64,000 nt of DNA, from positions 183,790,175 to 183,854,174 of the forward strand of contig CM030362.1 in assembly GCA_017893485.1 (NCBI GenBank), given 5' to 3'. Below are positions 3,528 to 61,570 of the stretch, one piece after another; within the stretch, counting starts at the first letter, position 1; the number at the start of each line of letters is the position of its first letter. A model generated the notes under the pieces. It saw only the letters and a list, made by a program, of their open reading frames with translations, did not search any database and was not told the DNA's origin. The stretch is from Hemerocallis citrina. Lineage: Eukaryota; Streptophyta; Magnoliopsida; Asparagales; Asphodelaceae. The position numbers and the translations under genes were made by a program.

Positions 3528-3880
3528 TCGACTTATACTGTAGTAAGTCGACTGTCCAGAAGGACAAATATCCAAAATTTTACAAAAATAAACTAAGTCA
3601 TATAAGTCGACTTAGAAGAGTATCAGTCGACTTACCCGAGGTAAATTCCGATAATTTCACAAAAATATTCTAAGTATATAAGTCGACTTAAAGGATTATA
3701 AGTCGACTGTCCAGAAAGGACAAAAATAGTTTTTTACAAAAATATTTTCCAGTGAACCAGTCGACTGCCTACGAGCTAGGTCGACTGTCCAGAACGATTT
3801 CTCAAGGATACTAAAGTACAGCAGCAGGCTCGTACCAGTCGACTGTGCGGTAGGCCAGTCGACTGTCGGCCTACGGTTTT
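3528..3880. repeat. GTCGAC palindrome array in the gypsy-like LTR
   Basis: About ten copies of AGTCGACT variants occur in some 350 bp, often as pairs facing a short spacer and followed by GTCCAGAA. The same core is arrayed in two unrelated copia LTRs of this window (44225-44415 and 57100-57250). Confidence 0.75.
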
Positions 3881-7790: not shown

Positions 7791-8629
7791 ACTTGTATTA
7801 AATTCCTTTGCATATATATAAGTACAAAATACCGCTTGTACTGTAGTTGGGTTCTAAAGACAATTCGTGTGTGAAAGGCTTTGTTGATAGTGTCTCTATT
7901 GTGATGATTTGACCATAGTTGCCTCACGACATATATGACATGAATTAACTTAGGGTTGACCACTTTTGATGTATATGATCATGCTATCTTGTGATATTTG
8001 TGCTTGATGTGTTATGCGTGATATACTTGTCGAATACTTGTAAAATACTCTATACCATGTTGCTTGGACATCTAGTACACTATATTTCATGTTATCATCC
8101 TATTGTTCTCTTATTGATACTATCGTTCATCTAATGTCTCTATATTGCATATTGTATTGTTGTATTAATAAAATAATTAACAAGCCAGGGTTTAAGGGTT
8201 GACTTTTAGTAGTGGACAATATAGTAACTGTACTCGGAGGAGGGGCCCGTGTTTCCCTAAATATTATTCTGGCTATTGTTTTATCATGTGATTGTGGTTA
8301 CGACGGTAACCCAATCTATCATGTATTGTATTGTTGCCGATGATCGTATCGTACACCGAAAGATGAATAATATTTATCGTTGAAGAGTTCATGAACTATA
8401 GAGCCTACCACTTAAGTCTAAAACAAAATTGATTGTATGCATCGAACATGTGGTACGGAACACATGGGACACAGTAGTACATACATTAGTTATGATTAAA
8501 ATGAATAATAGACTTAAGGATTAACACAATATCGACATTGCATATTGTTCATCATTGGTCCTATTAATATCGAATATTACATGATACTTGTTCACTCGAC
8601 GCTTATTACATACTACTTACACTTGTTTA

Positions 8630-11600
8630 TGTCACGCCCCGTTTCCCAATATACGAAAATATAGACACGCAACTGAGGTCTAGCGAATAATATACATCAT
8701 CCATAAGCTGTACAATTATAAGTTCAACAAGATATTTATAACACATTCACACAGGAGAATATAACGATCACATGTGCTAGAAATAGAATAACCATCATCT
8801 GGATAATACATCAATATCGAGTCAAAATGCCCAGGAATACAATGTGCCAGAATTAAAACAGTACGATAAGCAGTTCGCTATAATAACTAGATAAAATAGC
8901 GACTGAAAGAAAAACAACATGAAGTAGTAAGTAAGCAGCAACGATCGTCTAGAGATTTTGCTCGTCGGGTCCATTAGTACCTATATAATTATTAACTCAA
9001 AGAAAAATAAAAAAGTACCCGTTAGAGCAAGCTTCGGGCAGCAAGTAGCAACAAGCAGTAAAGGGGTAATATAACAAGATTTAACAGGGAAGAAACAAGA
9101 AGTAGAAGTACAAATACAATATGAAAGTAAGTAAGGAACTGGGACAATATGATCATGTAACTAATAACCGAAACTAGTGTATTCAAGACTTCAAAGTATA
9201 ATCAATTGATAACCTAGGCTCAGTTAATCGATAATCATATAATCAAGAATCGAGAGTCATGTAATGAAGAGTCATATAATCAAGAATCATGTAATCAAGA
9301 ATCAAGAGTCATGTAATGAAGAGTCATGTAATCAAGGATCATGCTCAGTGAAAATCTCGAGTTTATCTATTTTATTAACTTATCTAATGCACGCAATCAT
9401 GTGTCCCATACCACAAGTTCGGTGCATATCAATCATGTGACGTTTAGACTTAAGTAGCGAGTTCTATAGTCTTCCTATGATAGTATCAAGACATGTAATC
9501 AAGAATCAAGAATCACTATATTGGGAAACACGGGCCCCCTTCCGAGTATACTCCCCTATATTGTCCATTACTAAGCCGTACCCTTATAACCCCGACTTGT
9601 TATTCTTTTATAATTAATTATGAACATGCATTGGTACGACTAGTGAAATGGTAAAATCAAGACAGTTAATTTAGAAAAATATCAATGGCAGTAATCATGG
9701 TATGAGATAAAACGGGTACATGTATCAAGAGTAGTTATCATAGAATTATCAAGTGATATAAAATGCATTATATGAGAAAATCTATCAACCTATTATATCT
9801 ATACAAGTTATTATTACAAGAACAACAATACATATAGTTCAGTTCATAAAATATGAAAAATAACGGGTTTATATGCAAAAACGAAGAGATGAATTTTTAG
9901 ACATCACATATCTGCATGCAAATTCACTTTTCCGTTGTTACAGAAAAGCAAATCCAATTCCGTCAAAAATTCTAGAAAGTAGACTCTCTTCCGGTTCCAA
10001 TGCATATTCACACGATACATTCTAGAGACAGTAGCTATATATGCGTACAAATTCATTCTTCGCTGGTTTTGATGTTTCGTGCACATTCTGAAAATTCAGA
10101 GTCACGGTACTAAAATCGCGATATCTCACAATCTATAAGTCGGATTGAGAAAACGTACGATGTTCTGAATATCTAGACTCGAAGGGCTACGATTTTCATG
10201 TAGAAAGTTCTTCGATCCAGTGTCAGGAACATGGTCGAATTTTCAGTACAAGAGATCGATTAGTGGTCCCGTGCAAGTTCAGAAATTTATGATATGACAG
10301 TACTAAAATCACGATATCTCACAATCTATACATCGGATTGAGGAACCGTAAGATATTCTAGATATCTAGACTCGAAGGGCTACGATTTTCAAGTAGAAAG
10401 TTTATCGATCCAGTATCAGGAACAATGTCAAATTCTCAGTATAAGAGACCGGTTAGTGATCCCGTACAGGTTCAGATATTTACGATATGACAGTACTAAA
10501 ATAGCGATATCTCACAATCTATACATCGGATTGAGGAACCGTAAGATGTTCTGGATATCTAGACTCGAATGGCTACGATTTTTATGTAGAAAGTTTCTCG
10601 ATCCAGTATCGGGAACAAGGTCAAATTCTCAGTACAAGAGACCAGTTGGTGATCCTGTGCAGGTTCAGAAATTTACGATATGACAGTACTAAAATAGCGA
10701 TATCTCACAATGTATACATCGGATTGAAAAACCGTAAGATGTTCTGGATTCGGAACTCAATGGGCTACGATTTTCATGTAGAAAATCTTCAATCCAGTAT
10801 CGGAAATATAGTCAAATTCTTAGTGCAAGGTCAAGAAATTTAGAGACAGCAAAGTTGAATATTCGATATTCGATAACATGATTCGAAATGTGTTAACGGT
10901 TCACTCTTGAGTTGATATAGCATGGAACAAGTGACTAGAATGGAATTTGAAAATAAAACTTGATGATAACTAGACTACTTGCCACGAGTCCAAGAAAAAT
11001 GCTTTTACGAGAATAAAGAGAGTGTACAAGATACTTGCCTTATAACGTGACGATTATGATGGTGGTGTTAACCAGGAAAAGAAGAAGCAACGCCGGCAAC
11101 GAACGGCGGCAAGAATGGAAGCAAGACGGCAACGAGCGAGCAACGGTAGCAATGGTGAGCGATGGTGATGAGCGACAACAACAAAGAGGAGATGGCGCGG
11201 CATCGGGTTGTTTGGGATTGAGTTTGGGTTGTCTTTTGAGGTTTACGGGACCGTAGAAGCGCAGTCTTCGGCTCGAAGGTGGAGGATAAAGTGGAGCTCG
11301 GGTGTTGGCTTGGGCTCTCGGGTGTGAAGAAGGCAGAGGAAGAGAAGGAGAGGTGAAGAATGAGACATAGAGATGAGTGTGAGGTGTGATATATGTGTGT
11401 GTATATATATAGAAAGAAAGGAATAGGAGTGTGTTGTATGTGTATGTGTGTATATAAATATAAAGAGAGGAAAGAGACCATGTGTGCATGGTGTGTGCAA
11501 GTGTGTTTGAATGTGTACATCATATATATATATATAATATATAATGAGTGTGCATGCATGCATGGTGTGTGTATAAAATAAGGGAAGAAAGAGATGGGGG

Positions 11601-11978
11601 TGTAGAAAAATGTAAAAGAAGACAGAAGGAGAGGTTGACGGAAGAGAGGGAGTTAGGCGTAGAATGAGAAAAATGAGGGGGAGAGGTTGACGTATGCAGA
11701 AGTGGGGATTATAGGGAGGGAGAAAAAGAAGTGTAGAGAGGAAGAAAATAAGGTGAGTTAGGTTAGCTGTTGGATTAAGAATTATGATTATGATTATGAT
11801 TAATCAGGGTTAGAATTTGTATTTAGACTCCGTCTGAATCACAAAATTATGGAATTGATCAAAAAAATATTCTGCCTCTTGATAAGGAATCCGAAGAGAA
11901 GAAAAATAAAATTGATCAGAAAATTAAAGTAAAAAAAGTTCACGTAATAAAAATGTACAACTTGAACAGGGAGTTACA
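8630..11978 (-). mobile_element. 3' LTR of the LOG-bearing element
   Basis: This 3,349-bp LTR aligns along its whole length with 13636-16811. It holds four ~193-bp tandem units (10105-10840) against three in its partner, which largely accounts for the length difference. Near the element-strand start, repeats such as ATTATGATTATG differ from the GGATTAGGATTA version in the partner. Many scattered substitutions suggest an insertion that is not recent. Confidence 0.85.
10105..10840. repeat. 193-bp tandem array in the 3' LTR (about four units)
   Basis: Each unit begins near GACAGTACTAAAAT and continues CGATATCTCACAATCTATA, with units starting near 10105, 10298, 10492 and 10685. Units differ by scattered substitutions. 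Confidence 0.85.
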
Positions 11979-12020
11979 ATCCTACCCACCTTACAAAAAA
12001 ATTTCGTCCTCGAAATTTAC
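11979..12020 (-). promoter_or_regulatory. Polypurine tract and end-of-pol remnant
   Basis: On the minus strand this reads CGAGGACGAAATTT, then AAGGTGGGTAGGAT directly before the LTR start TGTAACTCCC. That arrangement is the usual end of pol plus the second-strand primer in plant gypsy elements, and it shows that the carrier derives from an autonomous gypsy element. Confidence 0.75.
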
Positions 12021-12207
12021 TCAGGTGAGATATAGAATAGATAAAAAGCGAATGCAATACTCTTCAACCGAGAGTACAATAGAAGATAAAAAAACAAAGA
12101 GTACAAAGGCACGAAAATAACTAAAGAAAAATTGTGCACCCTCAATTGGAGGACTTAACAATTTAATGTTGGGGATCAGAATCTGAACCACTGACATCGC
12201 TAAAATC

Positions 12208-12858
12208 CTAGTTCAGCTGGGTCACAAGCTCATTCCACTTTGGCACATAGTCCTCCAATTTTCTGAGTAACTCCTTAGGCGATGGAGCTAAAATCAAGAT
12301 ACGTCTGGCCTTACTGGATATAAACTCCTCAGCCACAACTGAATCTATGAAGGACAGAAACGAGTCATAATATCCATCAACATTTAATAGACCAACTGGC
12401 TTGCTGTGGATTTCCAGTTGAGCCCAAGTGATCACCTCGAACAATTCCTCAAGTGTTCCATAATTTCCAGGTAAAGCTATGAAAGCATCAGCAGTGCGAG
12501 CCATCTTAGCCTTCCTCTCGTGCATATTAGAGACAACTCTAACTTCTCCCACAGTTTCCCCAGTAATCTCCTTCGGCATCAGCGACTTGGGAATCACTCT
12601 CAAAAAGTGTCGGCCACCCACATGAACGGCGTCAGAAACCAGGCACATCAATCCTATGCTCCCACCACCCTAGACGAAATCGATATTCCTCTCTATAAGC
12701 TTCTTGCCGAGCTCGATTGCGGCTTCTTGGTAGCTAGCTCTTTTACCAGAGCTACTGCTACAAAATACACAGGTCCTGCTGAATCTGGATGAAGATGAAG
12801 AAAGCTTCTTCATACCTACTTCTCCTTCTTCTTGCACCGACTTTATCTTCATTCCCAT
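12208..12858 (-). pseudogene. LOG: LONELY GUY-like cytokinin riboside monophosphate phosphoribohydrolase, intronless copy with one internal stop
   Basis: LOG enzymes release active cytokinin bases from nucleoside monophosphates in one step in the cytosol. The reading is one frame of 217 codons, a normal length for the family, starting MGMKIKS and ending VTQLN. Recognisable blocks are [18 protein letters not shown], then [73 protein letters not shown] and LLNVDGYY. Catalytic Arg (HERK) and Glu (GTLEE) are kept, but the motif PGGxGTxxE has Asn for the second Gly. A TAG at 12670-12672 replaces the Tyr usually found before GGGSIG. Plant LOG genes are normally multi-exon, so this looks like a cDNA-derived copy. 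It lies between the two LTRs in the same orientation as the element. Confidence 0.88.
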
Positions 12859-12885
12859 CACCGATTCTTGATACTGAGCTCCCAC

Positions 12886-13150
12886 TCACTCTCTTTCTTT
12901 CTTGCTCCCACCTCTGCTATCGGCTTCTCACACTCTCTCTTGCTCCCGAGTTCTCTTCTTGATTCTCTTCTTCCCTTTCTTTCCCAACTTCTCTCTCTTT
13001 TTCTTTCTTCTCCGACTTCTCTCTCTTTCTTCTTCCTCTTTCTTTCTCTTTTTCTTTCTTTCTTCTTCTTCTTTCTTCTTTCTTTGACTTCTCTCCTCCT
13101 TTCTCTTCTTTTTATTTCTTCTTCTTTTTGTCTTTTCTTCATTAATGCAC
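12886..13150 (-). other. GA-rich tract upstream of the LOG copy
   Basis: On the LOG strand this is an almost pure purine stretch built of GAAAGA and GAGAGA words. It could be the 5' untranslated part of the captured LOG transcript or expanded simple sequence. Open frames across it are low-complexity artefacts. Confidence 0.5.
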
Positions 13151-13189
13151 CGCCCCCTATAACCGGCCTATGATCAGTATCTGCACTTC

Positions 13190-13268
13190 GGTCCTTATCC
13201 ATTCCAAATATAATATCGAATCCTGAGTTGTTGATTATGATGAAATTTGCTTCAAAATTCATGCCATG
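13190..13268 (-). pseudogene. Remnant of a Ty3/gypsy aspartic protease
   Basis: The minus strand reads MNFEANFIIINNSGFDIIFGMD, close to the F-x-A-x-LIV...S-FDVILGMDW block at the end of the protease in plant gypsy polyproteins. The usual WL after GMD is missing and the match stops there. It shows that most of gag-pol was removed and that the GA-rich tract plus LOG now occupy its place. Confidence 0.55.
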
Positions 13269-13614
13269 AACCAACAAGGAATCTGCTATGCTTCCGCTGC
13301 ACCACTCTGATTGTGATACTCCAAGCCGTTGACATGACGCAGCAGAAAAAGTGATGCCGATTAAAAGAACAGGTAGCAATAAAACCAAAAAGAATATGGT
13401 TTTGAAAAGAATTAACTAGCAGTATACCCAATAAAAAATCAATGAATGAAGATGAATATAAGGGACGGATGGAACTAAGCAATGAAAGAATGAAATATGA
13501 AGGGATCAAAAACTAATCGAAAAAGTTTAATATTCGAGTTCAAATGATGGTTATCGATATTCATGTGATCAATGCCGCGTGTACACTTATTGAGCTAACA
13601 TGGTTCGAGCCTAG

Positions 13615-13626
13615 GCTCTGATACCA
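13615..13626 (-). promoter_or_regulatory. Primer binding site of the LOG-bearing element
   Basis: GCTCTGATACCA on the + strand is complementary to the Met-tRNA primer site. It is 9 bp from the LTR border at 13636, slightly farther than usual. Confidence 0.75.
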
Positions 13627-13635
13627 CTAAAAACC

Positions 13636-16600
13636 TGTCACGCCCCGCTTCCCAACATACAGAAATACAGCCACGCAACTGAGGTCCAGCGAATGATATA
13701 CATCATCCATAAGATGTACAATTATAAGCTCAACAAGATATTTATAACACATTCATACAAGCAAATATAATGATCACATGAGCTGGAAATAGAATAACTA
13801 TCATCTGGATAATACATCAACTTCGGGTCAAAATGCCCGGGAATACAAGGCGCCAAAATTAAAACAGTATGATAAGCAGTTTCCTATAACAACTAGATAA
13901 AATAGCGACTGAAAGGAAAAAAACATGAAGTAGTAAGAAAGTAGCAACGATCGTCTAGAGAGTTTGCTCGTCGGGTCCATCAGTACCTGTATAATTATTA
14001 ACTCAAAGAAAAATAAAAAAGTGCCCGTTAGAGCAAGCTTCGGGCAGCAAGTTGCAACAAGCAGTAAAAGGGATAATATAACAAGATTTAACAGGAAAGA
14101 AACAAGAAGTAGAAGTACAAATACAATATAGAAGTAAGGAACTGGGACAATATGATCATGTAACTAATAACCGTAACTAGTCTATTCAAGACTTCAAAGT
14201 ATAATCAATTGATAACCTAGGCTCAGTTAATCGATAATTATGTAATCAAGAATCGAAAGTCATGTGATGAAAAGTCATATAATCAAGAATCATGTAATCA
14301 TGAATCAAGAGTCATGTAATAAAGAGTCATGTAATCAAGGATCATGCTTAGTGGAAATCTCGAGTTTATCTATTTTATTAACTTATCTAATGCACGCAAT
14401 CATGTGTCCCATATCACAAGTTCGGTGCATATCAATCATGTGACATTTAGACTTATGTAGTGAATTCTGTAGGATTATTTACTCGGGTCTTCCAGTGATA
14501 GTATCAAGATATGTAATCAAGAATTGTGTAATCAAGAATCAAGAATCACTATTTCGGGAAACACGGGCCCCCTTCCGTGTATACTCCCCTATATTATCCA
14601 TTACTAAGTTGTACCCTTATAACCCCGGCTAGTTATTCTTTTATAATTAATTATGAACGTGCAGTTGGTACGACTAGTAGAACAGTAAAATCAAGACAGT
14701 TAATCTAAAAAAATATCAATAGCAGTAATCATGGTATGAGATGAAATGGGTACATGTATCGAGAGTAGTTATCATAGAATTATCAAGTGGTATAAAATAC
14801 ATTATATGAGAAAATCTATCAACCTATTATATCTATACAAGTTATTATTACAAGAACAATAATACATATAGTTCAGTTCATAAAATATGAAAAATAATGG
14901 GTTTATATGCAAAAACGTAAAGAAGAATTTTTAGACAACATCACATATCTGCATTCAAATTCACTTTTTCGTTGTTACAGAAAAGCAAATCCAATTCCGT
15001 CAGAGATTCTAGAAAGTAGACTCTCTTTCGGTTCCAACGCATATTCATACGATACATTCTAGAGATATTAGCTATGCGTACAAATTTATTCTTCGCTGGT
15101 TTCGATGTTTCGCGCACATTCTGAAAATTTAGAGTCAGTACTAAAATTGCGATATCTCACAATCTATAAGTCGGATTGAGGAAACGTACGATGTTCTGAA
15201 TATCTAGACTCGAAGGGCTACGATTTTCTTGTAGAAAGTTCATCGATCCAGTGTCGGGAACATGGTCGAATTCTCAGTACAAGAGACCAGTTAGTGGGCC
15301 CGTGCAGGTTCAGAAATTTACGATATGACAGTACTAAAATCGCGATATCTCACAATCTATATATCGAATTGAAGAACCGTAAGATGTTCTGGATATGTAG
15401 ACTCGAAGGGCTGCAATTTTCATGTAGAAAGTTTCTCGATCCAGTGTCGGGAATATGGTCAAATTCTCAGTACAAGAGACCGGTTAGTGATCCCGTGCAG
15501 GTTCAAAAATTTACAATATGACAGTACTAAAATCGTGATATCTCACAATCTATACATTGGATTGAGAAACCGTAAGATGTTCTAGATTCGGGACTCGATG
15601 GGCTACGATTTTCACGTAGAAAATCTTCAATCCAGTATCGGAAACATGGTTGAATTCTTACTGCAAGGTCCAGAAATTTAGAGATAGCAAAGTTGAATAT
15701 TCGATATTCGATAACACGATTCGAAATGTGTTAACGGTTCACTCTTGAGTTGATATAGCATGGAACAAGTGACTAGAATGAAATTTGACAATAAAACATG
15801 ATGATAACTAGACTACTTGCTACGAGTCCAAGGAAAATGCTTATACAAGAATAAAGAGAGTGTACAAGATAATTACCTTATAACGTAACGATTATGATGG
15901 TGGTGTTAACCACGAAAAGAAGAAGCGACGTCGGCAATGGACGGCAGCAAGAATGGCAGCAAGACGGCAATGAGCGAGCAACAGTAGCAACGGTAAGCGA
16001 CGGTGATGAGCGACAACAACAACGAGGAGATGGCGCGGCATCAGGTTATTTGGGATTGAGTTCGGGTTGTTTTTCGGGGTTCACGGGACCGTAGAAGCGC
16101 AGTCTTCGGCTCGAAGGTGGAGGATAAAGTGAAGCTCGGGTGTTGGCTTGGGCTCTTGGGTGTGAAGAAGGCAAAGGAATAGAAGGAGAAGTGAAGAATG
16201 AGACGTAAAGATGATGGTGCAGTGTGGTATTTGTGTGTGTATATATATAGAAAGAAAGGGATAGGAGTGTGCTGTATGTGTATGTGTGTATATAAATATA
16301 AAGAAAGGAAAGAGACGGAATGTGCATGGTGTGTGCAAGTGTGTATGAATGTGTACATTATATATATATAATATATAATGAGTGTGCATGCATGCATGGT
16401 GTGTGTATAAAATAAGGGGAGAAAGAGCTGAGGGTGTAGAAAAATGAAAAAGAAGATAGAAGGGGAGGTTGACGAAAGAGAGGGAGTTAGGCATAGAATG
16501 AGAAAAATGAGGGGAAGAGGTTGGCATATGCAGAAGTGGGGATTATAGGAGGGAGAAAAAGAAGCGTAGGGAGGAAGAAAATAAGGTGAGTTAGGTTAAC

Positions 16601-16811
16601 TGTTGGATTAAGAATTAGGATTAGGATTAGGATTAATCAGGGTTGGAACTTGTATTTAGACTCCGACCGAATCAAAAAATTATGGAATTGATCAGAAAAA
16701 TATTCTGGCTCTAGATAAAGAATCCAAAGAGGAGAAAAATAAAATTAATCTGAAAATTGAAGTAAAAAAATTCACGTAATAAAATACGTACAACTTGAAC
16801 AGGGAGTTACA
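13636..16811 (-). mobile_element. 5' LTR of the LOG-bearing element
   Basis: This 3,176-bp LTR pairs with 8630-11978. It shares the block at about 14560-14640 (GGGAAACACGGGCCCCCTTCC) with other LTRs in the window and includes three 193-bp units. Confidence 0.85.
15130..15690. repeat. 193-bp tandem array in the 5' LTR (three units)
   Basis: Units with CAGTACTAAAAT and CGATATCTCACAATCTATA begin near 15135, 15327 and 15520. One unit fewer than in the other LTR implies gain or loss after insertion, or during reverse transcription. Confidence 0.82.
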
Positions 16812-17350
16812 ATCTATCTTACCATGCTAGTTGTTATATTTTGTTATCATGTCTATTCCATGTTATTAGTTATCCTTTTTCCCATGTACTTGTGCCTGCA
16901 TTATAAGCGGCCTGTAACTTGCATTGACGGACGTTTGTTTTCTTTTTCTCTTCCTGCAATTTATTAATTTGCAGATTTTGGTAAACAGTTGTCTGCTAGA
17001 GTTGGAGAACAAATAGTCTGAAGACTACTGCTTTCTAATTGCTTATTGCTTTAATAAAATTAATGTATTGAGACTTGTTATTATTTTGGATTGGATTATT
17101 ATTGTATTGGACTTATGTTCCGAATATTGTTATTTATTTCCAGACGTTGAATTATTATTGTACTTGGATATTTTATATTGCTTCAATTCAAGTATTATTG
17201 TTCATGAGATTGTTATTATTGCTTGCACAAATGTTCTGTATTGATTATATTATTGAGTTGATCAAATAAACAGCTTATGGGTGACGTTAGTCATTCGCTG
17301 GGCCAATGTCAGTACTCGTATTCCGTATTTTTGGAAAGCAGGGCATGACA

Positions 17351-17935
17351 AACATGCAGTCAAACCTAATTCTAGCGAGGCATGATATGATCTTCGTATC
17401 CACAGATTGGGAGGACATTTTTCCGTTCGCATCCGTCAAAGCCATTACGAGATTTACATCGGATCACACCCCATTAGCCCTACAATGCAGAGAGAGACAA
17501 AGAAATGTCTGACAACCGTTCAGATTCGAGAAGGCTTTGACGTTGCATGATCAGATCCGTAACATTATCAGCGAGTCATGGAACGAGGATTCCGACTCTA
17601 ACAGCGCCATCGGGATATGGATTATGAAGACTAGGAGATTACGAAAAAGGCTGAAAGAGTAAGAAAGATAGGAGTTCGGTGACATCAACAGAAAGAGGGA
17701 TGACATAGGAGAAAGAATTAAGGAATTAGAGGAGGCAGAGGAGGGAAGAGATTTAGAAAGAGAGGAGATAGAAGAACTGGCAAATTGCAGGTTTAACTCT
17801 CATCAACTTGCAGAGATGGAGGAACAATATTGGAGGCAAAGATCCAGAATTCAATGGCTAAAAGAGGGGGACGCCAATACAAAATTCTTTCACAAGGTTG
17901 CTAACGGTAGAAGGAGGTAGAACCGCATCATCGAA
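17351..17935 (+). pseudogene. LINE A endonuclease C-terminus and linker
   Basis: From the duplicated AACAT the frame resumes as NMQSNLILARHDMIFVST and then DWEDIFPFASVKAITRFTSDHTPLAL, which matches the endonuclease end of LINE B (ILVSTEWEDKFPLA, RFTSDHTPIAL). The His of SDH is the catalytic residue of this nuclease family. A stop near 17512, then the linker with [22 protein letters not shown], and another stop near 17660 follow. The linker motif is typical of plant L1 ORF2. Confidence 0.8.
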
Positions 17936-19180
17936 ATGGAGGTGGATTCAAGATGGTCTGAGAATGAGGGGGAGATCAGAAGATGCCTAGATGGAAAATT
18001 CAAAGAACTTGTGGCTCAAACAAATAGACATAGATGTAGGATGATTTCAGAATTCTGGGAGGATACAAGAGTAGACGGAAGCGAAGGGATAGAGGGTCCT
18101 TTCTCAGAGGCGGAAGTTTTTCAGGCTATTAAAAGCCTGGGACAAGACAAAGTACCTGGGCCAGACGGAATTCCGATCTTCTTCTATAGCCTATACTGGA
18201 GCATCATCAGAGTCGACCTAATGAATATCTTTCAGGAATTTCACTGCCAGTCAATGGATATCGACAGGTTAAACTACGCAAATGTAGTTCTAATTCCCAA
18301 GAAAAAGGAGGCTAGGAAATATGAAGACTACAGACCTATTAGCCTTATCAACGGGTCATTCAAGATTATCACAAAGGTCATGGCTACAAGATTGGCACCG
18401 CACTTAAATGACGTTGTAAGCACGTCACAGAGTGGTTTTATTAAAGGGGGGGACATTATGGACAGTGTCGCCTCCGCTCATGAGATACTGTATAAAGGAA
18501 ACAAGGATAACGTCGACGGTTTTCTACTGAAACTAGACTTCGAAAAGGCGTACGACTCTATGGAGTGGGATTGCATTGACGAGGTTCTTCAACTAAAAGG
18601 TTTCGGGGAAAGATGGAGAGCATGGATTAAGAAATGTGTAAGGGAAGGGAAATCGTTCGTACATTTCAACGGGAAACAGGAAAAGGAAATTAGATGTAAA
18701 AGATGGTTGAGACAGGGAGATCCATTGTCTTCTTTAATCTTCGCATTGGTCGCTGATGGCATAGAGAAAATGATTAGAAGGGGGACAGAGGAACGAATTA
18801 TAAAAGGTGTTCAAGTGAAAGGGATTACAGAACCAATCTCGATCATTCAATATGCGGACGACACGATTATCCTTGGAGAGGCTAAAGGGGAAGAGATCAT
18901 GGCAATACATATTATTTTGAAATGCGTACAGGTATGGGTAGGACTGAAAGTGAACCTCACAAAGACCTATGTTTCCCCACTTAGCGGAAACCTTAGCATC
19001 GAGATCAACTCAATCATGTCTATGTTGGGATGCAAGGTAGCTAACTATCCAATAAAGTATCTGGGAACACCAATTAGACCTGGAGCTATTAGGAAGGAAG
19101 ATTGGTTGCCGTTAATAGAGAAAGTGGAAAGGAAGTTGGAATGGTGGAAGGGTCGTTTCCTCAGTTGGGAGGGAGGATAA
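17936..19180 (+). pseudogene. LINE A reverse transcriptase domain
   Basis: This open frame of 414 codons holds the L1-type RT core: PGPDGIP near residue 74, LIPKKKEARKYEDYRPISL near 119-137, DFEKAYDSMEWD near 201-212 with the first catalytic Asp, RQGDPLSS near 259-266, and YADD at 306-309 with the catalytic pair. It is a fragment of ORF2, not a separate gene: upstream codons belong to the same protein and a frameshift after residue 405 sends the frame into a stop. The usual QG of RQGDP is present, so the core itself looks undamaged. LINE B is a close relative. Confidence 0.85.
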
Positions 19181-36524: not shown

Positions 36525-37313
36525 CTACTCCTCCTCCTCTCCCAAGCGCATCTTCTTCCTGGATCTGATACTCCCTGCCCATTCATAACAACATAAGTGA
36601 ATTTTGTGCATGAGAAAAGAGAGTCTATGGGTAACACTATTGAAACAGTAGTCATTACGATTTAGCCAGAGGTTCCACATAATAGAAGCAACCACCCTAT
36701 CCCACTCTAATCTTACTTCCTTTCTAATCCTGTTCAATCTAATGTCCCCCCAAACCTCAGCACTAGACCCTGGACCCCGTAATACCCCGTACGTATGACC
36801 GACTTTCTCCCAGACCCATGTCGCTCTATAGCACTTGAAAAGGATGTGATTAGTATCTTCTTCGCAATTTAGACATCTATTACAAATCGCGTCGTCCAGC
36901 ATACCCCGCTTCATCAAATTAACCTTCGACAGAATCACATCATTATCCACCAGCCAAAGAAAAACTTTAACTCTGGAAGGAACGTTGGTACCCCATATTA
37001 CATCCGCGACTCCGTTTCTTATCCCTCCATCATTCAACCATTTGTATAATGAGGAGACCGAGAATTTACGATTTGCCTCCAGTGTCCACCATCTCTCGTC
37101 TTCCGACTGTTGAGTGTAATTTTCTTCTATACGAATGAAATTGTTGACCAGTTAAAGTTGACAAATAGATTCCTGATCCAGAACATTCTTGACTTCTAAT
37201 CTCAACTTATTGTTCTTCCAAACGTCGCTCACTAGTTTGTCATTGTTAAGTACTGCCTCTGCAGCTGAGGGAAACATTCCCATAAGGGAGTTATTACCGC
37301 ACCCTTTGTCTTT
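36525..37313 (-). pseudogene. LINE B ORF2 C-terminus with zf-RVT domain
   Basis: The last part of ORF2 reads RKFSVSSLYKWLNDGGIRNG, then VKVFLWLVDNDVILSKVNLM, CNRCLNCEEDTNHILFKC and SIMWNLWLNRNDYCF. The CxxC, H and C of the zinc-binding domain are all present. A TAA at about 37153 and a stop directly after NGKNTRF (about 37314) separate it from the RT part. Confidence 0.8.
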
Positions 37314-38993
37314 CTAAAATCTTGTATTCTTGCCATTCTTAACCCTACATAGAGTGTTGCTATGACAAACTTCGCCTGTCTTGTATACCCTTTTCCATAA
37401 GAATGACTTCCTACTGTGGACTCCCTTTCCCCCAGATCTGAACTTCTTCCTTGCCCTATAATTAGTAAGAGACTTACACCACAAATTGTTGTGTCGGTTA
37501 GCCAACTTCCACCACCACTTACTGAGTAGGGCCTTGTTCATATCCTTAAGATTAATGATCCCTAATCCGCCAAACTCTTTCCTTTTGCAGACCCTCCCCC
37601 AACCAATCAGGTGGATCCCTTTACCTCCCTCGTTTGCTCCTTTCCACAGAAATCTCCTTCTACATTGATCTATCTTGTGAATTACCCAAGCCGGTAGTTC
37701 ATAAATGGACATGAGGTAGATAGGGATGCTGTTGATGACAGAATTAAGTAATGTGATCCTGCCTCCTAGTGTTAAAGATTTTCCTTTCCAGCCAGCAAGT
37801 CTTTTTTCGATCCTATCAATCAGGGGTTGCCAATCTTCCCTAGAGAGCTTCCCAGTCCTGATAGGGATGCCTAGATATACCAGCGGAAACTCCCCCTTAT
37901 TGCAGCCAAGCATTTGTTGGATCGATGTGGTGGGAATGGAGCATTTGTCGCTAAGCTGAATGACACAACTCTTATTGAAGTTAACCTTCATACCCGACCA
38001 TACCTCGAAGCACTTCAAGACCATTCCCATAGCTATGATATCCTCCTTCGATGCCGATCCAAACAGTAGAGTATCGTCTGCATACTGAAGGATAGAGATT
38101 GGCTCTGAAAAACCTTTCATATTTATGCCGAAGCTAGCCCTCTCTTTTTTGCCGTTAGCTATCATCTCTGCCAACCCATCTGCTACAATTGCAAATAACA
38201 TCGACGACAATGGATCCCCTTGTCTAAGATCTCTCTTGCATCTGATTTCTTTTCCTTGTGCTCCGTTAACGATAAGGAACAATTTACCTCCTCTGATGCA
38301 CTGAGAGATCCACTTCCTCCACCTTTCCCCAAATCCTTTTAGGAGCATAACCTCATCTACGGAGTCCCATTCGACTGAGTCGTATGCCTTTTGAAAATCT
38401 ACTTTAAAAAGAAAGCCATCCGTATTGTCCTTGCTACCTCTGAAAACAATTTCATGGGCCGAAGCGACGCTATCCATAATGTCTCTTCCCTTAATGAAGC
38501 CGCTTTGTGAGTCGCCAACGATATCCTTTAAATGTGGGCCCAATCTATTAGCCAGCACTTTGGTGATAATCTTAAAGGAGCCATTGAGTAGCCTGATGGG
38601 TCTCAGGTCTCCAACCTCTTTAATCTCTTGTTTCTTGGGGATGAGAAAGATATTGGCATAATTTAATCTATCTAAATCCACCTCTCCCTTATAAAAATCT
38701 GCGATGGTATGCATGAAATCCTCTCTGATGATTTTCCAATATAGCTTGTAAAAAAATAGCGGAAAACCGTCTGGACCTGGCGCCTTTTCCAACCCCAGAG
38801 TCTTGGTAGCCAATGCAACTTCCTCTTCATTGAGACTGCTTTCGATGTTATCAAAACCGTTGATCCTTGATTCCATCCACATATTCGGATTCAGCGAACA
38901 CCTATGGTCCATTCTTTTGCCCAGTAACTCCTTATATGTCTCATTAATGTGATGCGTGATTCTGTCCTCGCTCTCGCACCAAACTCCGTTCAC
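37314..38993 (-). CDS. LINE B reverse transcriptase part of ORF2
   Basis: An open frame of 559 codons with the complete L1 RT core: APGPDGFP near residue 71, NGSFKIITKVLANRLGPHL near 137-155, DFQKAYDSVEWD near 199-210, RQGDPLSSMLF near 258-268, YADD at 304-307, and GGRITLLNSV in the connection region near 397. Catalytic Asp residues are present. The frame is bounded by stops that interrupt the longer ORF2: a single TAG upstream, after NGRR in the linker, and one downstream after NGKNTRF. The start shown is only the first Met after the upstream stop; the real protein would continue from the endonuclease. It is close to LINE A in sequence. Confidence 0.85.
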   Translation of the reverse strand: MNGVWCESEDRITHHINETYKELLGKRMDHRCSLNPNMWMESRINGFDNIESSLNEEEVALATKTLGLEKAPGPDGFPLFFYKLYWKIIREDFMHTIADFYKGEVDLDRLNYANIFLIPKKQEIKEVGDLRPIRLLNGSFKIITKVLANRLGPHLKDIVGDSQSGFIKGRDIMDSVASAHEIVFRGSKDNTDGFLFKVDFQKAYDSVEWDSVDEVMLLKGFGERWRKWISQCIRGGKLFLIVNGAQGKEIRCKRDLRQGDPLSSMLFAIVADGLAEMIANGKKERASFGINMKGFSEPISILQYADDTLLFGSASKEDIIAMGMVLKCFEVWSGMKVNFNKSCVIQLSDKCSIPTTSIQQMLGCNKGEFPLVYLGIPIRTGKLSREDWQPLIDRIEKRLAGWKGKSLTLGGRITLLNSVINSIPIYLMSIYELPAWVIHKIDQCRRRFLWKGANEGGKGIHLIGWGRVCKRKEFGGLGIINLKDMNKALLSKWWWKLANRHNNLWCKSLTNYRARKKFRSGGKGVHSRKSFLWKRVYKTGEVCHSNTLCRVKNGKNTRF

Positions 38994-39314
38994 CTTTAGC
39001 CCTAATATATGGTTTGTTCATCTTCTTCCATTAGCAATCCTATGAAAGAATTTAGTGTTAGCATCTCCCTCCTTAAGCCACTGGATTCTGGATCGTTGCC
39101 TCCAATAGTTTTCCTCCATCCTTTCCAATTGTATGATGTCTTGCCTATTCCTATAAAGCTCGTCGAATTCGGCCTCTATTAAGTCTCTTTCCTCCTCTAT
39201 AAGCTCTAATTGCTCTATCTTCTCCCCTATTTCTTCTTTGATTCTTTGGTTCTGGCCGAATTCAGCCTTGGCCCACTGTTTCAGCTTTATTCTTAGCCTC
39301 CTAATCTTTTCAAT
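38994..39314 (-). pseudogene. LINE B ORF2 linker with stops
   Basis: Between the domains the frame continues as a charged linker ending [20 protein letters not shown] and FFHRIANGRR, as in LINE A, with a stop before and after. It shows that endonuclease and RT belonged to one protein. Confidence 0.75.
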
Positions 39315-40142
39315 CTAGCACCCTACCGAAGAGTCAGATGAATTAGGCGCATTCCAGCTTTCCTCAATAATCTTCTGTGTTCCATCACACAACGTCCATG
39401 ACTTTTCAAATCTAAACTGGTATATGTTCCTTGTTTCACCTTCTCCGCAATCCAACGCGATCGGGGTGTGATCTGAGGTGAATCTAATCAATGCTCTTGC
39501 CGTAGCTAATGGGAATTTGTCTTCCCATTCAGTGGACACCAAAATTCTGTCTAATTTTGCCAAAGTAGGGACAGCTTGTAAATTCGACCATGTGTATTTC
39601 CTATTCGTAGGGTCGATTTCCACTAAGTCTAAACCGTTGATTAACGCGTTGAACTGCTCCCTATCTCCCCTAGACGCACCTCTACCAAGATGTTCAAATT
39701 GGAATCTTGTAATGTTAAAGTCTCCTCCGACCACCCACGGACCCCTGCATCTTCCTCTAATGGAACTAAGCTCGTCCCAGAGCAGAATCCTTTGAGCCGA
39801 CTCGTAAGGACCGTACACGGAGGTTACCGTATGAATCCAACTATCAGCTCTTCTTCTGATAGTGATCGTTACCGAAAACGTCCCCGCAATTTCGTCTATA
39901 ATCTCAAACACTGTAGGATCTACCCCAATGGCTATACTACCTGAAAAACCTCTGGAAGATTTAAACCTCCACTCAAAGGATCCTATACCCTTAATGCTCT
40001 GGAACTCTTCCGTGGTCGGAGATTCAACCCTAGTTTCCTGAAATGCGTAAATGGTCGGTTTGAACCTAATTATAGTGTCGCTAATTAGTCTTTTTTTTAA
40101 TTTCTGTCTCATCCCCCTGACATTCCAAAAGATGTATAACAT
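39315..40142 (-). CDS. LINE B endonuclease part of ORF2
   Basis: A 275-codon frame opens with WNVRGM and contains FQETRV with the conserved Glu, VTSVYGP, GPWVVGGDFNITR, RKYTWSN, LDRILVSTEWED and RFTSDHTPIAL, the ordered motifs of the exonuclease/endonuclease/phosphatase fold used by L1 to nick target DNA. Active-site Asn, Glu, Asp and His are visible. The frame ends at a stop after SVGC, where ORF2 should run on into the linker. The ATG at 40140-40142 is a plausible ORF2 start, since the WNVRGM motif is normally near the N-terminus. Confidence 0.85.
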   Translation of the reverse strand: MLYIFWNVRGMRQKLKKRLISDTIIRFKPTIYAFQETRVESPTTEEFQSIKGIGSFEWRFKSSRGFSGSIAIGVDPTVFEIIDEIAGTFSVTITIRRRADSWIHTVTSVYGPYESAQRILLWDELSSIRGRCRGPWVVGGDFNITRFQFEHLGRGASRGDREQFNALINGLDLVEIDPTNRKYTWSNLQAVPTLAKLDRILVSTEWEDKFPLATARALIRFTSDHTPIALDCGEGETRNIYQFRFEKSWTLCDGTQKIIEESWNAPNSSDSSVGC

Positions 40143-40195
40143 TCATAACTATTATCTTGAACTCCTATACTCTAGACTCTAGCGCATCCCCCTTG

Positions 40196-41383
40196 TTATT
40201 CTATTTGTTGCTGACTGTCCCCTCTAATAATATTCACGTGATACAATTGCTCCTCCCTATTGGAACCCATGGCTAGACTGTAAAGACTAGCAAAGTATAT
40301 AAGCGAATCTTCATTTAAAATATTTAATACTAAAAAATTAGTCGAAGGAATACCTTGACAGGCAGAAGTAGGCTCTCTAGTCTTTGCCGCTGCTCTAATC
40401 AAGTCATCTTCGCTCGGACCAGTCGCGCCCCATTTATCCAACTGTCTTTTTCTTTTCCGCTGAAACTCCACAATATTTCTGACCCCACCGACGTCTTCTC
40501 TCTCCCCTGCATCCCCCCCAGCTAACTCTCTCACTTGCTTTGCCCACTTTTCGCGCTCGGAGTCATATGCCCTTCTGCCACTTTGTAGACCGTCGAAAGC
40601 ACCAATCATGCCATCGATAGGCTCCGAATCAACCACATGAGCACTCTGCTCTAAGGATTGCTCCGAGTCAACCTCAACCAAGTTGTTCGCATCTGCCATT
40701 GCATCAATCACCCGGTTGGAATTTTCCCCTATTTCTTCTTCCCCTATAGTAGTCTTCGCTGTCGAATTTCCCTGCTGAATCTCAAGCCCAAGCCCACTCG
40801 AGTTTCCTTGCTGGATCAGAGTCTCAAGCCCAAGCCCACCCGAAGCTCTTCCTGGCCCAAAGTCCCCTTCATTAAAGTTATGTTGATTGGACTGGGCTCT
40901 GTCTGTGATGGGCCTAGAGATAAAATCTAGCTGTGTGTTAGGCTTTTCGAAAGTATCCACGTCTTCATCTTCCTGAGAACCGGGGGTTCGAATTTCGGTG
41001 CCAAAACCACTGGAGGCCAAACCACCTCTGCGCGCAATGTCCTCTATTGCCTTCTGGTTAGAAAGCTGAAGTTCCTCTTTCGACAGCAGCGCGAAACCAG
41101 GATCCTCTCTCAATAACCGCTTCCTAGTCTCGAAATCCCCACTCGACGCTATCTTCAGAATCCCCGGTTTTCGGGAGATCAGTGCTCTATCCCCTGTACT
41201 CTCAACCAGTACTTCCTTCCCATCGCGCCACTGAGGTACCGCTGTCTCCCTGGCTAGTTCCTTCGATCCCGGACCCCGTACGCTTTTTTGAATTGTAGCC
41301 TTGAGATTCGACCCATATTCATTTGCAATTTTGATTGTGTCGTGAATCTTGATCATGGATGAACGGCCGAGATCTTGGTCCAT
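40196..41383 (-). CDS. LINE B ORF1, C-terminal portion
   Basis: A 395-codon frame just upstream of the endonuclease, rich in charged and polar residues (for example ENSNRVIDAMADANNLVEVD and FQRKRKRQLDKWGA). It is in the place of the RNA-binding ORF1 protein, but the N-terminal nucleic-acid-binding part and CCHC knuckle normal in plant L1 ORF1 are missing because the element is truncated at about 41394. No strong motif identifies it; the call rests on position. Confidence 0.6.
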   Translation of the reverse strand: MDQDLGRSSMIKIHDTIKIANEYGSNLKATIQKSVRGPGSKELARETAVPQWRDGKEVLVESTGDRALISRKPGILKIASSGDFETRKRLLREDPGFALLSKEELQLSNQKAIEDIARRGGLASSGFGTEIRTPGSQEDEDVDTFEKPNTQLDFISRPITDRAQSNQHNFNEGDFGPGRASGGLGLETLIQQGNSSGLGLEIQQGNSTAKTTIGEEEIGENSNRVIDAMADANNLVEVDSEQSLEQSAHVVDSEPIDGMIGAFDGLQSGRRAYDSEREKWAKQVRELAGGDAGEREDVGGVRNIVEFQRKRKRQLDKWGATGPSEDDLIRAAAKTREPTSACQGIPSTNFLVLNILNEDSLIYFASLYSLAMGSNREEQLYHVNIIRGDSQQQIE

Positions 41384-41394
41384 TCCAAATTATA

Positions 41395-44606: not shown

Positions 44607-45077
44607 TTAACCTAGAGACAATCCGATAGCGGTATAGCAAAACTGATCTTTTTTGGTATCCACCACCTTAGTGAGCATGTCCGCCGGATTCTTAGTGCCA
44701 AGAATCTTAGTTAGCTTCAACCATTTCTTCTCAACTGCCATTCTGACAAAATGATACCTCATTTGAATGTGCCGAGTCCTAGAGTGATATACCGAGTTTT
44801 TTGCCAAGAAAATTGCACTTTGACTGTCACACCATAGTTCACCAATGGGTTGCTTCCTACCCAACTGTTTCATAAGCTCCGAAATCCACAACATGCCTTT
44901 CGTCACTTCCGTATGTGTCATATACTCTGACTCCGTGGTTGACTGCGCTACAACCTTTTGTAACTGTGAAGCCCAACTAACAGCTGTTCCACCAACTGTA
45001 AATACATACCCTGTAGTACTTCTGTAACCATCACGATCGCCCAAAAAATCTGCATCCACATAACCATGTATATGCAA
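44607..45077 (-). pseudogene. Copia-2 RNase H
   Basis: The frame reads GYVDADFLGDRDGYRSTTGY, VFTVGGTAVSWASQLQKVVA, STTESEYM and HIQMRYHFVR. DAD...G, STxEAEY-like Glu and the HIxxRYHF tail are the standard copia RNase H marks. It ends ATAGGL before the polypurine tract. Confidence 0.85.
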
Positions 45078-45149
45078 ATAATATTCCCCAAAACAAAGAG
45101 AGTGATCTGAAGTACCTGTTAGATATCTAAGAATTCACCTTACTGCATC

Positions 45150-46056
45150 CTAATGCTGTTTACCTGAATTCTTCATGTAATGGCTAACAACTCCCACTGC
45201 TTGTGCGATGTCTGGTCTTGTAGACATCATCGCATACATCAAACTCCCAACAGCTGAGGCATAAGAAATGGTAGCCATTTCCTCCATCTCCGCCTCTATC
45301 TTAGGACACAAGTCCATTGATAACTGAAGTGAGTAGCCAAGGGACAAGTGACTGACCTCGTGCCATCCATATTGAATCTCTTCAACACCTTCTTTACATA
45401 GTCCGCTTGTGATAACCAAAGCTTCTTACTACTCTTGTCTCTACTAATCTTCATACCGAGGATTTGTTTTGCTTCACCCAAGTCCTTCATTGAAAACTTC
45501 GAAACTAGCATCTTTTTCACTTCCTTGATCTTCTCCATATATGAACCTGCTAACAGCATGTCGTCCACATACAACGCCAAGGTAACTGTATCATTTCCTC
45601 ATATCTACGAACGTACACACAATGATCCGTTTCGCATCTATCGAAATCTTTCCCTCTCATGAAGCAATCAAACTTCAAGTACCATTGTCGCGGTACTTAT
45701 TTGAGCCCATAAAGACTCTTCTTCAATCGACACACTATGTCTTCCTTTCCTTTAGCTTCAAAACCTGTGGGTTGTCTCATGTACAGCTCTTCTTCGACAT
45801 CACAATGGAGAAATACTGTCTTCACATCCAACTGCTCTAAGTGCAAGTCTTCAACTGCGACAATACTAAGCAGAACCCTAATAGAAGCCATCTTCACAAC
45901 CGGTACAAAGATCTCACTATAATCGACGCCTTCCCTTTGAGAGAATCCTTTCACAACAAGCCTGACCTTGTACCTCTTACTGCCATCTACCTTATCTTTG
46001 ACTCTAAAAACCCATTTGTTCATAAGAGCGCGCTTCCCTGTGGGTAACTTGGTCAA
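45150..46056 (-). pseudogene. Copia-2 reverse transcriptase, frameshifted
   Basis: Three overlapping frames together give the copia RT: NKWVFRVKDKVDGSKRYKVR, LVVKGFSQREGVDYSEIFVP, VEDLHLEQLDVKTVFLHCDV with the first catalytic Asp, then after a break ALYVDDMLLAG with the catalytic YVDD, KFSMKDLGEAKQILGMKI, and YASAVGSLMYAMMSTRPDIA. Frameshifts fall near 45600-45690 and 45300-45400. In VKTVFL the usual Ala is Val. Confidence 0.82.
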
Positions 46057-46071
46057 CTCCCAAGTTTGGTT

Positions 46072-46694
46072 CTATTCTAAGGAGCTCATCTCGTCCTTCA
46101 TGGCTAACTCCCACTGAATTCGAGCCGCAACCCTCAAAGCCTCCTTATGAGTCTCTGGCTCCCCCGAATCCGTGTACAGAATATGCTCGTAAACAACACT
46201 AGCTGATGGATCAAATATCCTAGTTGGCCTCCTCTTTCGTGTCGATCTCCTCAACATGGGTACGGTTCACCGACCGGTTCAAGTTCCCCGAACTGTTCTG
46301 GCTGTACCTATTCGTCTTGCATAACCTGCTCATTCTCAATAGGCTCACCATGAGCCTCCTGTGCTGCCTGTGGTACTTGTACCTACTGTTGCACTGTAGG
46401 GTTCTCTCCACTAGGACCGCTTTCAGAATCTAAATCTGAGTCTGAGTCTGAACCCCAATCTGATTCTGAACTGGTTGTACTATCTTGACCTGTGTGCATG
46501 TCCTTGTATAGGACCTCCTCATCGAACACTACATTCCTGCTGCGAATGACTTTGTTATCCACAAAATCCCAAAGCCTGTAACCATACGCATCGCCATCGT
46601 AGCCAATGAAGACACACCTCCTCAACTTAGAGTCCAACTTCTTTCTTTCTTCCCTGTCAATTAGTGCATATGCCATACAACCATAAACTTTCAA
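46072..46694 (-). pseudogene. Copia-2 integrase C-terminus and linker to RT
   Basis: Frames read KVYGCMAYALIDREERKKLD, RRCVFIGYDGDAYGYRLWD and VIRSRNVVFDEEVLY, the well-known end of copia integrase, then an acidic Ser-rich linker and RRSTRKRRPTRIFDP. A frameshift lies near 46250-46390. Confidence 0.78.
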
Positions 46695-46718
46695 ATGCGA
46701 ATAACTAACAGTTTTACC

Positions 46719-47594: not shown

Positions 47595-47600
47595 GACTAA

Positions 47601-48107
47601 TTATCCACCATTGCGAGTCTTCACTCTCACAGTGCCTCTACCCACAACTGGACATATCTGTCCATTACCAACTGAAACTGCACCAAAATTACATGTCCTG
47701 TAATCCTCAAAAATATCCCTCATAAGGGTACAATAATAAGAAGCACCTGAGTCTATATACCAATTATTAAATCCAGCAGATAAATACAATTCATCTATAT
47801 GGGGTTTAATACTTTTCACATTGGCGACCTGTGACCATGCTTGTGTTTTCTTATACTCCTCGCATTGGTCTCTCCTGTGTCCTGCCTTCTTGCAGTACCA
47901 ACACTCACCATTGCGATGTCCTGTTCTTGACTTGGACCTGTGATTCCTGCTCTGCGACCTCCTTCTGTTGTTACTTCTACCACGGTTATCAACTGATAGC
48001 GCGGTATTGCTAGGATATGACACTAAAGTCTCTCCATGTCTTTTCCTCATTGCATCCTCATTCATAATGCTGCTTATAACATCCTTTAGGGTTGTTGTAT
48101 CAGTCAT
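47601..48107 (-). pseudogene. Copia-2 gag end with zinc knuckle and aspartic protease
   Basis: CWYCKKAGHRRDQC is a CCHC knuckle of the CX2CX4HX4C type. It is followed by WYIDSGASYYCT, the active-site DSGA of the copia protease. The frame runs into a stop near 47601 just before the integrase frame. Confidence 0.85.
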
Positions 48108-48122
48108 GGTACTGGTAATAGT

Positions 48123-60444: not shown

Positions 60445-60576
60445 GTTATCAAGGGTATTTAAAATGAATACTTTGCATCTGAAGACACGAAAGTAACTTA
60501 GGTTAGGAATTTTGTCATAATATAGTTCAAAATGAGTTTTCTGAAGTTATTTTCTAATAATTACTTGGTTTATGGT

Positions 60577-61533: not shown

Positions 61534-61570
61534 GTGATTTGAGCATCCACTATCAAGGTACCACCGATCT

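What the first reader, a model, noticed from the sequence alone, without database searches (positions are those of the whole stretch)
8630..16811. LTR element that carries an intronless LOG cytokinin-activating enzyme sequence
Between two ~3.3-kb LTRs lie a Met-tRNA primer site, a gypsy protease scrap, a complete-length LOG coding sequence on the element strand, and the gypsy pol tail with polypurine tract. LOG genes of plants have several introns; this copy has none. The simplest reading is that a spliced LOG transcript was joined to a gypsy element during reverse transcription and then moved as part of it. If the element multiplied, LOG sequences under LTR control could be spread over the genome.
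Basis: partly seen in the sequence, partly recalled or inferred. Interest (0 to 1): 0.88.

Follow-up and report, generated by a model that had tools for sequence, protein, structure and literature searches.

The report
Retrotransposon family carrying a hormone-activating gene
In what is almost certainly the daylily genome, a jumping element picked up a spliced copy of a plant gene that switches on the growth hormone cytokinin and spread it widely; the gene's protein code was kept intact in the lines that kept jumping, which suggests that the element uses it.

Summary
The window element (minus strand) is LTR 13636-16811, Met PBS, protease scrap, LOG leader, full-length intronless LOG CDS (12852-12163), LOG 3' UTR, pol tail/PPT, LTR 8630-11978. 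This copy is dead: two in-frame TAGs and a broken PGGYGT motif. The host genome, very probably Hemerocallis citrina, holds 760 sites matching an element-LOG 34-mer (<=3 mismatches; control 0). Of nine other copies checked, eight have exact 5-bp target duplications and one 4/5; LTR divergence runs from 0 to 3.6%. The nearest host LOG gene has at least four GT-AG introns missing from the element. Seven element LOGs tested form one clade, sister to it.

The key result is purifying selection. Among 38 copies, singleton variants look neutral (omega 0.93); variants shared by three or more copies do not (0.27, CI 0.19-0.38), with no shared stop codons, and shifted frames show no such drop. Young copies differ with dN/dS 0.11-0.36. 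LOG was thus kept functional while the non-autonomous family amplified. LOG domains in Citrus Gypsy elements are already reported (PMC9289625), so this is a high-copy, selected, probably independent variant. How LOG helps the element is inference.

The parts
13636..16811 (-). 5' LTR of the element (element reads on the minus strand), with tandem 193-bp units inside
   Evidence: TGTAAC start, GTGACA end
13614..13626 (-). primer binding site TGGTATCAGAGCC (initiator Met tRNA; the tRNA assignment is recalled knowledge)
   Evidence: TGGTATCAGAGC found upstream of LOG in 10 of 10 other copies examined
13197..13280 (-). gypsy aspartic-protease scrap ending ...FDIIFGMD
   Evidence: RVP_2 E 0.017, below cut-off; the same scrap in another copy, E 0.054
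12853..13196 (-). purine-rich 5' leader of the captured LOG sequence; 5' junction at about 13197/13196
   Evidence: partly shared with the intronless LOG copy L065
12163..12852 (-). full-length intronless LOG coding sequence, a pseudogene in this copy
12670..12672 (-). premature TAG at the Tyr of VYGGG
   Evidence: Tyr in 38 of 39 other element copies
12208..12210 (-). premature TAG at a conserved Trp
   Evidence: Trp in 35 of 39 other element copies, stop in 2
12047..12162 (-). LOG 3' UTR, homologous to the sequence after the LOG stop in L065
11979..12019 (-). gypsy pol tail (TTCGAGGACGAAAT...) and polypurine tract
   Evidence: a 36-mer over the tail lies within 6 mismatches in 35 of 40 loci
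8630..11978 (-). 3' LTR of the element
8625..8629 (.). possible target-site duplication GTTTA (right side ATCTA at 16812-16816; 3 of 5 match)

Best explanation
The window holds one decayed member of a high-copy, non-autonomous Ty3/gypsy-type LTR retrotransposon family. It acquired a spliced host LOG sequence (leader, CDS, 3' UTR) in place of most of gag-pol, in the Hemerocallis lineage. It depends on helper elements for reverse transcriptase and integrase (inferred). LOG has stayed under purifying selection in the lineages that went on transposing, while each landed copy decays neutrally. Shown: LTR structure, intron loss against the nearest host gene, hundreds of copies, target duplications, recent insertions, codon-level constraint. 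Inferred: LOG enzyme is made from the LTR transcript, and its cytokinin-releasing activity benefits the element, most simply by keeping cells that express it dividing or meristematic and so on the route to the germ line.
For: Copies: 377+383=760 sites for an element-specific 34-mer at <=3 mismatches, reversed-pattern control 0 (seven other host LOG or retrocopy loci are 4-14 mismatches away); 40 of 40 loci have an element-type LTR match downstream of LOG. Mobility: 5-bp TSD exact in 8 of 9 copies, 4/5 in the ninth; LTR K 0 (2868 of 2868 identical) to 0.036. Intron loss: host C1 gene exons 824-1000, 1539-1636, 2288-2316, 3546-3649, 3741-3815 with GT-AG borders at four introns, contiguous in the element. 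Origin: element clade 100% (7 copies), sister to host LOG 97%. Selection: singletons N172/S71 omega 0.93; count >=3 N48/S68 omega 0.27 (CI 0.19-0.38); Fisher p 1.4e-7; stops 8, 2, 0 in classes 1, 2, 3+; shifted frames 1.31 and 2.13 in the shared class. Young copies dN/dS 0.11-0.36 in 15 of 15 pairs. 24 of 40 copies keep a stop-free frame of >=225 aa with both motifs sought. Two decayed intronless LOG copies of other surroundings: omega 0.49 and 0.56 to host, 0.79 to each other.
Against: No expression, protein or enzyme data were available. The 40 copies are the best-scoring of 876 candidates against the window copy, so the intact fraction is not an estimate for the whole family; L017 and L036 were dropped from the variant test. 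In type A pairs other than L010/L011 LOG dS (0.09-0.18) exceeds LTR p-distance (0.05-0.08), and L010/L011 differ by 0.6% in LOG but 5% in LTR, so recombination mixes histories. Type B copies have another LTR and another 5' junction. Repeated recapture from host alleles is not fully excluded. The window copy itself cannot encode LOG. L010, a young copy, already has a stop.
Confidence: 0.82

Rival explanations
1. Passive cargo. LOG was captured once and amplified by chance from a few intact source copies; it has no function, and its apparent conservation reflects short time since amplification.
For: Singletons are neutral (omega 0.93); many of the copies dated are young; captured genes in rice LTR elements are mostly not under purifying selection (PMC3726574, passages).
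Against: Shared variants show omega 0.27 with 0 stops where about 10.5 would be expected from the synonymous count; young copies already differ by dS 0.09-0.18 in 14 of 15 pairs at dN/dS 0.11-0.36; frame-shift controls do not show the effect.
Confidence: 0.08
2. Repeated capture or gene conversion. The LOG block was taken several times from different host LOG alleles or paralogues, so the synonymous-rich shared variation arose in host genes, not in the element.
For: LOG and LTR distances are discordant; 3 of 40 copies have an unrelated LTR type and a different 5' junction yet the same LOG; dS in LOG exceeds LTR distance in most pairs compared.
Against: All seven element LOGs tested, one of them type B, form one clade (100%) apart from the host gene; the 5' junction is shared by 34 of 40 loci at <=6 mismatches; residues such as Phe-140 and Leu-188, differing from the LOG consensus, are in 38 and 39 of 39 other copies; leaving out type B does not change the selection result.
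Confidence: 0.08
3. A later independent retrocopy: LOG was retroposed into an existing gypsy element at this locus and has nothing to do with element mobility.
For: Intronless LOG copies in other surroundings exist (L065, L068).
Against: Hundreds of copies, most of those examined with the same junction and, where checked, their own target duplications; no A-run or flanking repeat beyond chance around the LOG block; the window LOG is about as decayed as its LTRs or more.
Confidence: 0.02

Closest known systems
YgdH (LOG) domain in Gypsy elements of Citrus sinensis and C. clementina (and Populus without their filter) in PMC9289625, citing Steinbauerova et al. 2011
   Same: A LOG-family domain carried by plant Gypsy LTR retrotransposons in several consensuses of a species (section 12 read).
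   Different: Reported from consensuses found through their RT domain, in dicots; no selection, intron or age analysis of it in the section and passages that I read. The daylily elements lack RT, and their LOG groups with the daylily host gene, so I infer an independent capture; the Citrus sequences were not compared. Steinbauerova 2011 itself was not seen.
Maize Bs1 (transduced ATPase and other host gene segments)
   Same: LTR element with transduced host gene sequence (passages of PMC13317346).
   Different: Bs1 carries partial segments that formed a chimeric ORF; here a full-length enzyme CDS with leader and 3' UTR in hundreds of copies.
LTR-retrogenes and captured genes of rice, sorghum and Thlaspi (PMC3726574, PMC8764390; passages)
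   Same: Host genes duplicated between LTRs; some under purifying selection.
   Different: There, many different genes are captured. [quoted passage not shown] here one gene has hundreds.
Phalaenopsis Gypsy elements with an AlkB m6A demethylase ORF (PMC9289625; abstract and section 12)
   Same: Host-type enzyme ORF fixed in a Gypsy lineage with a proposed benefit to the element.
   Different: Giant 25-kb elements and an RNA demethylase; here a short non-autonomous element and a hormone-activating enzyme.
Acutely transforming retroviruses (recalled, no call)
   Same: Defective LTR element, gag-pol partly replaced by a spliced cellular growth gene, helper-dependent.
   Different: No infectious stage is shown, and the growth effect of this LOG is untested.

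Membership tests
LTR retrotransposon, Ty3/gypsy type | Paired LTRs with TG...CA ends, PBS after the 5' LTR, PPT before the 3' LTR | tested here: met
LTR retrotransposon, Ty3/gypsy type | Target-site duplication of 5 bp | tested here: met
   8 of 9 other copies exact (in L004 the LTR's first two bases read TA), 1 of 9 with 4/5; window copy 3/5
LTR retrotransposon, Ty3/gypsy type | gag-pol with gypsy order PR-RT-RH-IN | tested here: inconclusive
   Only a protease scrap below Pfam cut-off and, in some copies, a truncated gag with zinc knuckles (E 4.8e-05 in L004) remain; the gypsy assignment rests on these and on the form of the pol tail/PPT (recalled)
Autonomous LTR retrotransposon | Encodes its own RT and integrase | tested here: not met
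   PBS-to-LOG interval only 1011-2165 nt in 10 copies; none of the longest ORFs listed there looks like RT or IN by reading (only L004's gag ORF was scanned with Pfam)
LTR-mediated retrogene / transduced gene | Intronless copy of an intron-containing host gene between LTRs | tested here: met
LTR-mediated retrogene / transduced gene | Mobilised with the element (same junction at many sites, own TSDs) | tested here: met
   not the same 5' junction in the 3 type B copies
LOG cytokinin-activating enzymes | PF03641 domain and PGGXGTXXE motif (motif as named in PMC11593424, passage) | tested here: met
   Copy L011: PF03641 1.3e-46, PGGYGTLEE aligned with 2a33; the Gly lost in the window copy is kept in 36 of 39 other copies
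LOG cytokinin-activating enzymes | Phosphoribohydrolase activity on cytokinin nucleotides | not testable with these tools
   needs an enzyme assay
Named gypsy clade (e.g. Tekay, CRM, Retand) | RT/IN phylogeny | not testable with these tools
   no RT or IN in the element

The most novel reading that the evidence does not exclude
The element-borne LOG is a selfish growth effector: LTR-driven LOG releases active cytokinin in the cells where the element is transcribed, keeps those cell lines dividing and meristematic, and so raises the element's chance of reaching gametes, a plant counterpart of oncogene-carrying defective retroviruses.
Probability: 0.3. Interest if true: 0.93.

Novelty: new variant of a known kind. 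Interest (0 to 1): 0.76.

Why it matters
Transduced host genes in plant LTR elements are usually described as rare or decaying passengers. Here one hormone-activating enzyme has hundreds of copies, some only just inserted, and its reading frame shows the signature of selection in the transposing lineages. With the Citrus report this makes LOG a probably recurrent cargo, and it turns the question whether selfish DNA manipulates plant hormones into a testable one. It also warns that LOG gene counts and expression data in daylily could be confounded by element copies.

Tried and rejected
Considered and rejected: (1) intact LOG in the window: two stops and 14 of 102 conserved positions changed. 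(2) LOG decay much older than the insertion: the first estimate (14 changes, d about 0.06-0.07 against 0.039 per LTR) weakened when 2 of the 14 proved family-wide. (3) Striga as nearest relative: P0001 is a tandem-duplicated protein that only looks best by score. (4) A-runs or flanking repeats around LOG: none beyond chance. (5) A protein search with the LINE ORF to name the species gave at most 45% identity among the 120 listed, Asparagus best-scoring among named ones; the name Hemerocallis citrina rests on assembly size (3,775,421,867 bases; contigs met C1-C11, 217-472 Mb) against the abstract of PMC8027641 (3.77 Gb, 11 pseudochromosomes). (6) IQ-TREE's codon model printed no omega. (7) No genome-wide count of a leader marker: that search did not complete. 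(8) Literature: ten searches listed no paper that I recognised as describing a LOG-carrying element in Hemerocallis; the listings are capped and most subscription papers are not held. The daylily genome paper has no whole-word LTR, gypsy, LOG, cytokinin or retrotransposon in its main text.

Full report
What is there. On the minus strand the window holds an LTR element: 5' LTR 16811-13636, PBS TGGTATCAGAGCC 13626-13614, protease scrap to about 13197, a purine-rich leader, a LOG coding sequence 12852-12163, a 3' UTR to about 12047, the gypsy pol tail and polypurine tract 12019-11979, and the 3' LTR 11978-8630. The LTRs differ by K2P 0.078: about 3 My at 1.3e-8 (rate recalled) or 5.6 My at 7e-9 (the Arabidopsis rate quoted in PMC8764390, passage). 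The LOG frame has no intron and no frameshift, but two in-frame TAG codons, and 14 of 102 positions conserved in >=97% of 119 homologues are changed. Two of those changes are family-wide; each of the other twelve is in at most 2 of the 39 other copies. This copy is a pseudogene.

Whose genome. The highest identities among the 120 database proteins listed are Asparagus and Iris LOGs (79% and 78%; 85% for both). The genome searched is 3,775,421,867 bases, matching the 3.77-Gb, 11-pseudochromosome Hemerocallis citrina assembly (PMC8027641, abstract). The name is an inference.

The copies. A DNA search with the window LOG scored 40 of 876 candidates; apart from the window's own place they are 88-90% identical over all or nearly all of the query and lie on all eleven contigs C1-C11. 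A 34-mer in which 40 of 40 copies lie within 3 mismatches and seven other LOG loci lie at 4-14 has 760 sites at <=3 mismatches and none in the reversed control. A 36-mer across the protease/leader junction (the better of two natural copies) lies within 3 mismatches in 27 of 40 loci and within 6 in 34 of 40; shuffled versions reach 14 at best. A 36-mer over the pol tail lies within 6 in 35 of 40. LTR pairs were measured in 9 further copies: K 0, 0.0017, 0.0018, 0.0036, 0.0042, 0.0069, 0.0188, 0.028 and 0.0356; target duplications of 5 bp are exact in 8 and 4/5 in the ninth. A tenth copy, L005, had only a partial LTR pair and was left out. These are separate, partly very recent insertions. Of 10 copies examined, four longer ones (L004, L005, L010, L014) show an ORF with gag-type zinc knuckles (zf-CCHC E 4.8e-05 in L004); the four short ones (L006, L011, L016, L020) lack that part, and L013 and L027 show no such ORF. 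The PBS-to-LOG interval is 1.0-2.2 kb in 10 of 10 copies, too short for RT and integrase, so the family is non-autonomous.

Two LTR types. By best match 37 of 40 loci, the window's own included, carry the LTR type of L011 and 3 of 40 (L012, L025, L027) carry the L027 type, which does not align with the first (p about 0.53). These three also lack the common 5' junction (17 mismatches, chance level). The same LOG block therefore sits in two LTR backgrounds, presumably through recombination between co-packaged RNAs; this part of the family does not follow the simple one-structure picture.

Origin of LOG. The host gene on contig C1 has exons 824-1000, 1539-1636, 2288-2316, 3546-3649 and 3741-3815 (gene coordinates) with GT-AG borders at four introns; no next exon was found in the further 2.3 kb fetched. 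A C2 paralogue has an intron at the ALPG/GGYGT site as well. In the element these exons are contiguous. In a protein tree 7 of 7 element LOGs form one clade (100%), sister to the C1 gene, of which exons 1-5 were used (97%). The intronless LOG copy L065 shares leader and 3' UTR with the element and then diverges, which indicates that both came with a LOG transcript. L065 is not in this element's arrangement: no LTR-like repeat within 1.5 kb on either side, but a gypsy-tail-like stretch and weak integrase and chromodomain fragments lie downstream. L065 and L068 leave open a two-step route (retrocopy first, then capture) or an early side branch of the same history.

Selection. Variants in 38 copies (L017 and L036 dropped) were classed by the number of copies that carry them. 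Singletons: N 172, S 71, omega 0.93. Two copies: 0.86. Three to five: 0.40. Six or more: 0.097. Pooled three or more: N 48, S 68, omega 0.27, bootstrap 0.19-0.38; Fisher 1.4e-7. Stops: 8, 2 and 0. In the two shifted frames the shared class gives 1.31 and 2.13, without a drop. Without type B copies the result is the same (0.27), and in the 15 copies without stops or alignment gaps it is 0.14. Six young copies (LTR K <0.007) give dN/dS 0.11-0.36 in 15 of 15 pairs, one of them (L010/L011) on 3 differences only. Against the host gene, five young element LOGs show omega 0.17-0.21 at dS 0.59-0.69, while the decayed intronless copies L065 and L068 show 0.56 and 0.49 against the host and 0.79 against each other. 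N/S versus host, L011 compared with L068 and with L065: Fisher 0.025 and 0.002. The simplest reading is that LOG was kept functional along the transposing lineages and released from constraint after each insertion.

Limits. The 40 copies are the best-scoring ones. LOG dS exceeds LTR distance in the type A pairs compared except L010/L011, where LOG differs by 0.6% and the LTR by 5%, so recombination is active, and repeated input from host LOG cannot be fully excluded. Codon positions of shared variants point the same way more modestly: third-position share 57% against 37% for singletons, p 0.0003. There are no expression data.

How it works. Shown: spliced origin, mobility, amplification, coding constraint. 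Inferred: abnormal template switching during reverse transcription made the chimera (mechanism described in PMC13317346, passages); helper elements supply enzymes; LOG enzyme made from the element acts in its favour. The stop-free copy L011 retains the PGGYGTLEE motif and aligns over residues 19-228 of 232 with Arabidopsis 2a33.

Comparison. LOG (YgdH) domains were already seen in Citrus and, without their filter, Populus Gypsy consensuses (PMC9289625 section 12). That screen used RT as a marker, so it would miss a family without RT. [quoted passage not shown] The daylily family departs from that in copy number and in evidence for selection. I rate it a new variant of a known kind.

Noticed in passing
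10105-10790 and 15136-15628: 193-bp tandem units inside the LTRs; the 3' LTR has one unit more than the 5' LTR.
   Followed up: no
8164-8270: Inverted 78% match to part of the LTR just outside the element.
   Followed up: no
17921-19180 (+) and 36525-41389 (-): LINE-type reverse-transcriptase ORFs; one of them (37314-39017) matched plant LINE-type proteins at up to 45% identity, the others only by reading.
   Followed up: partly
44607-48122 and 58802-63222 (-): ORFs with copia-like integrase and RT motifs (read from the translations; not searched).
   Followed up: no
L065 (G000:C4:281209400-281211000) and L068 (G000:C11:97308200-97309800): Intronless decayed LOG copies not in the LTR-LOG arrangement, sharing its purine-rich leader; weak integrase- and chromodomain-like fragments lie downstream of L065.
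   Followed up: partly
L012, L025, L027: Same LOG block inside an unrelated LTR type and with a different 5' junction.
   Followed up: partly
L010 and L011: LOG differs by 0.6% but LTR by 5%, suggesting recombination between copies.
   Followed up: no
proteins P0241, P0242, P0244, P0245: Xanthoceras sorbifolium LOG-domain proteins of 336-406 aa score at or near the top of the list; tandem domains or fusions not checked.
   Followed up: no
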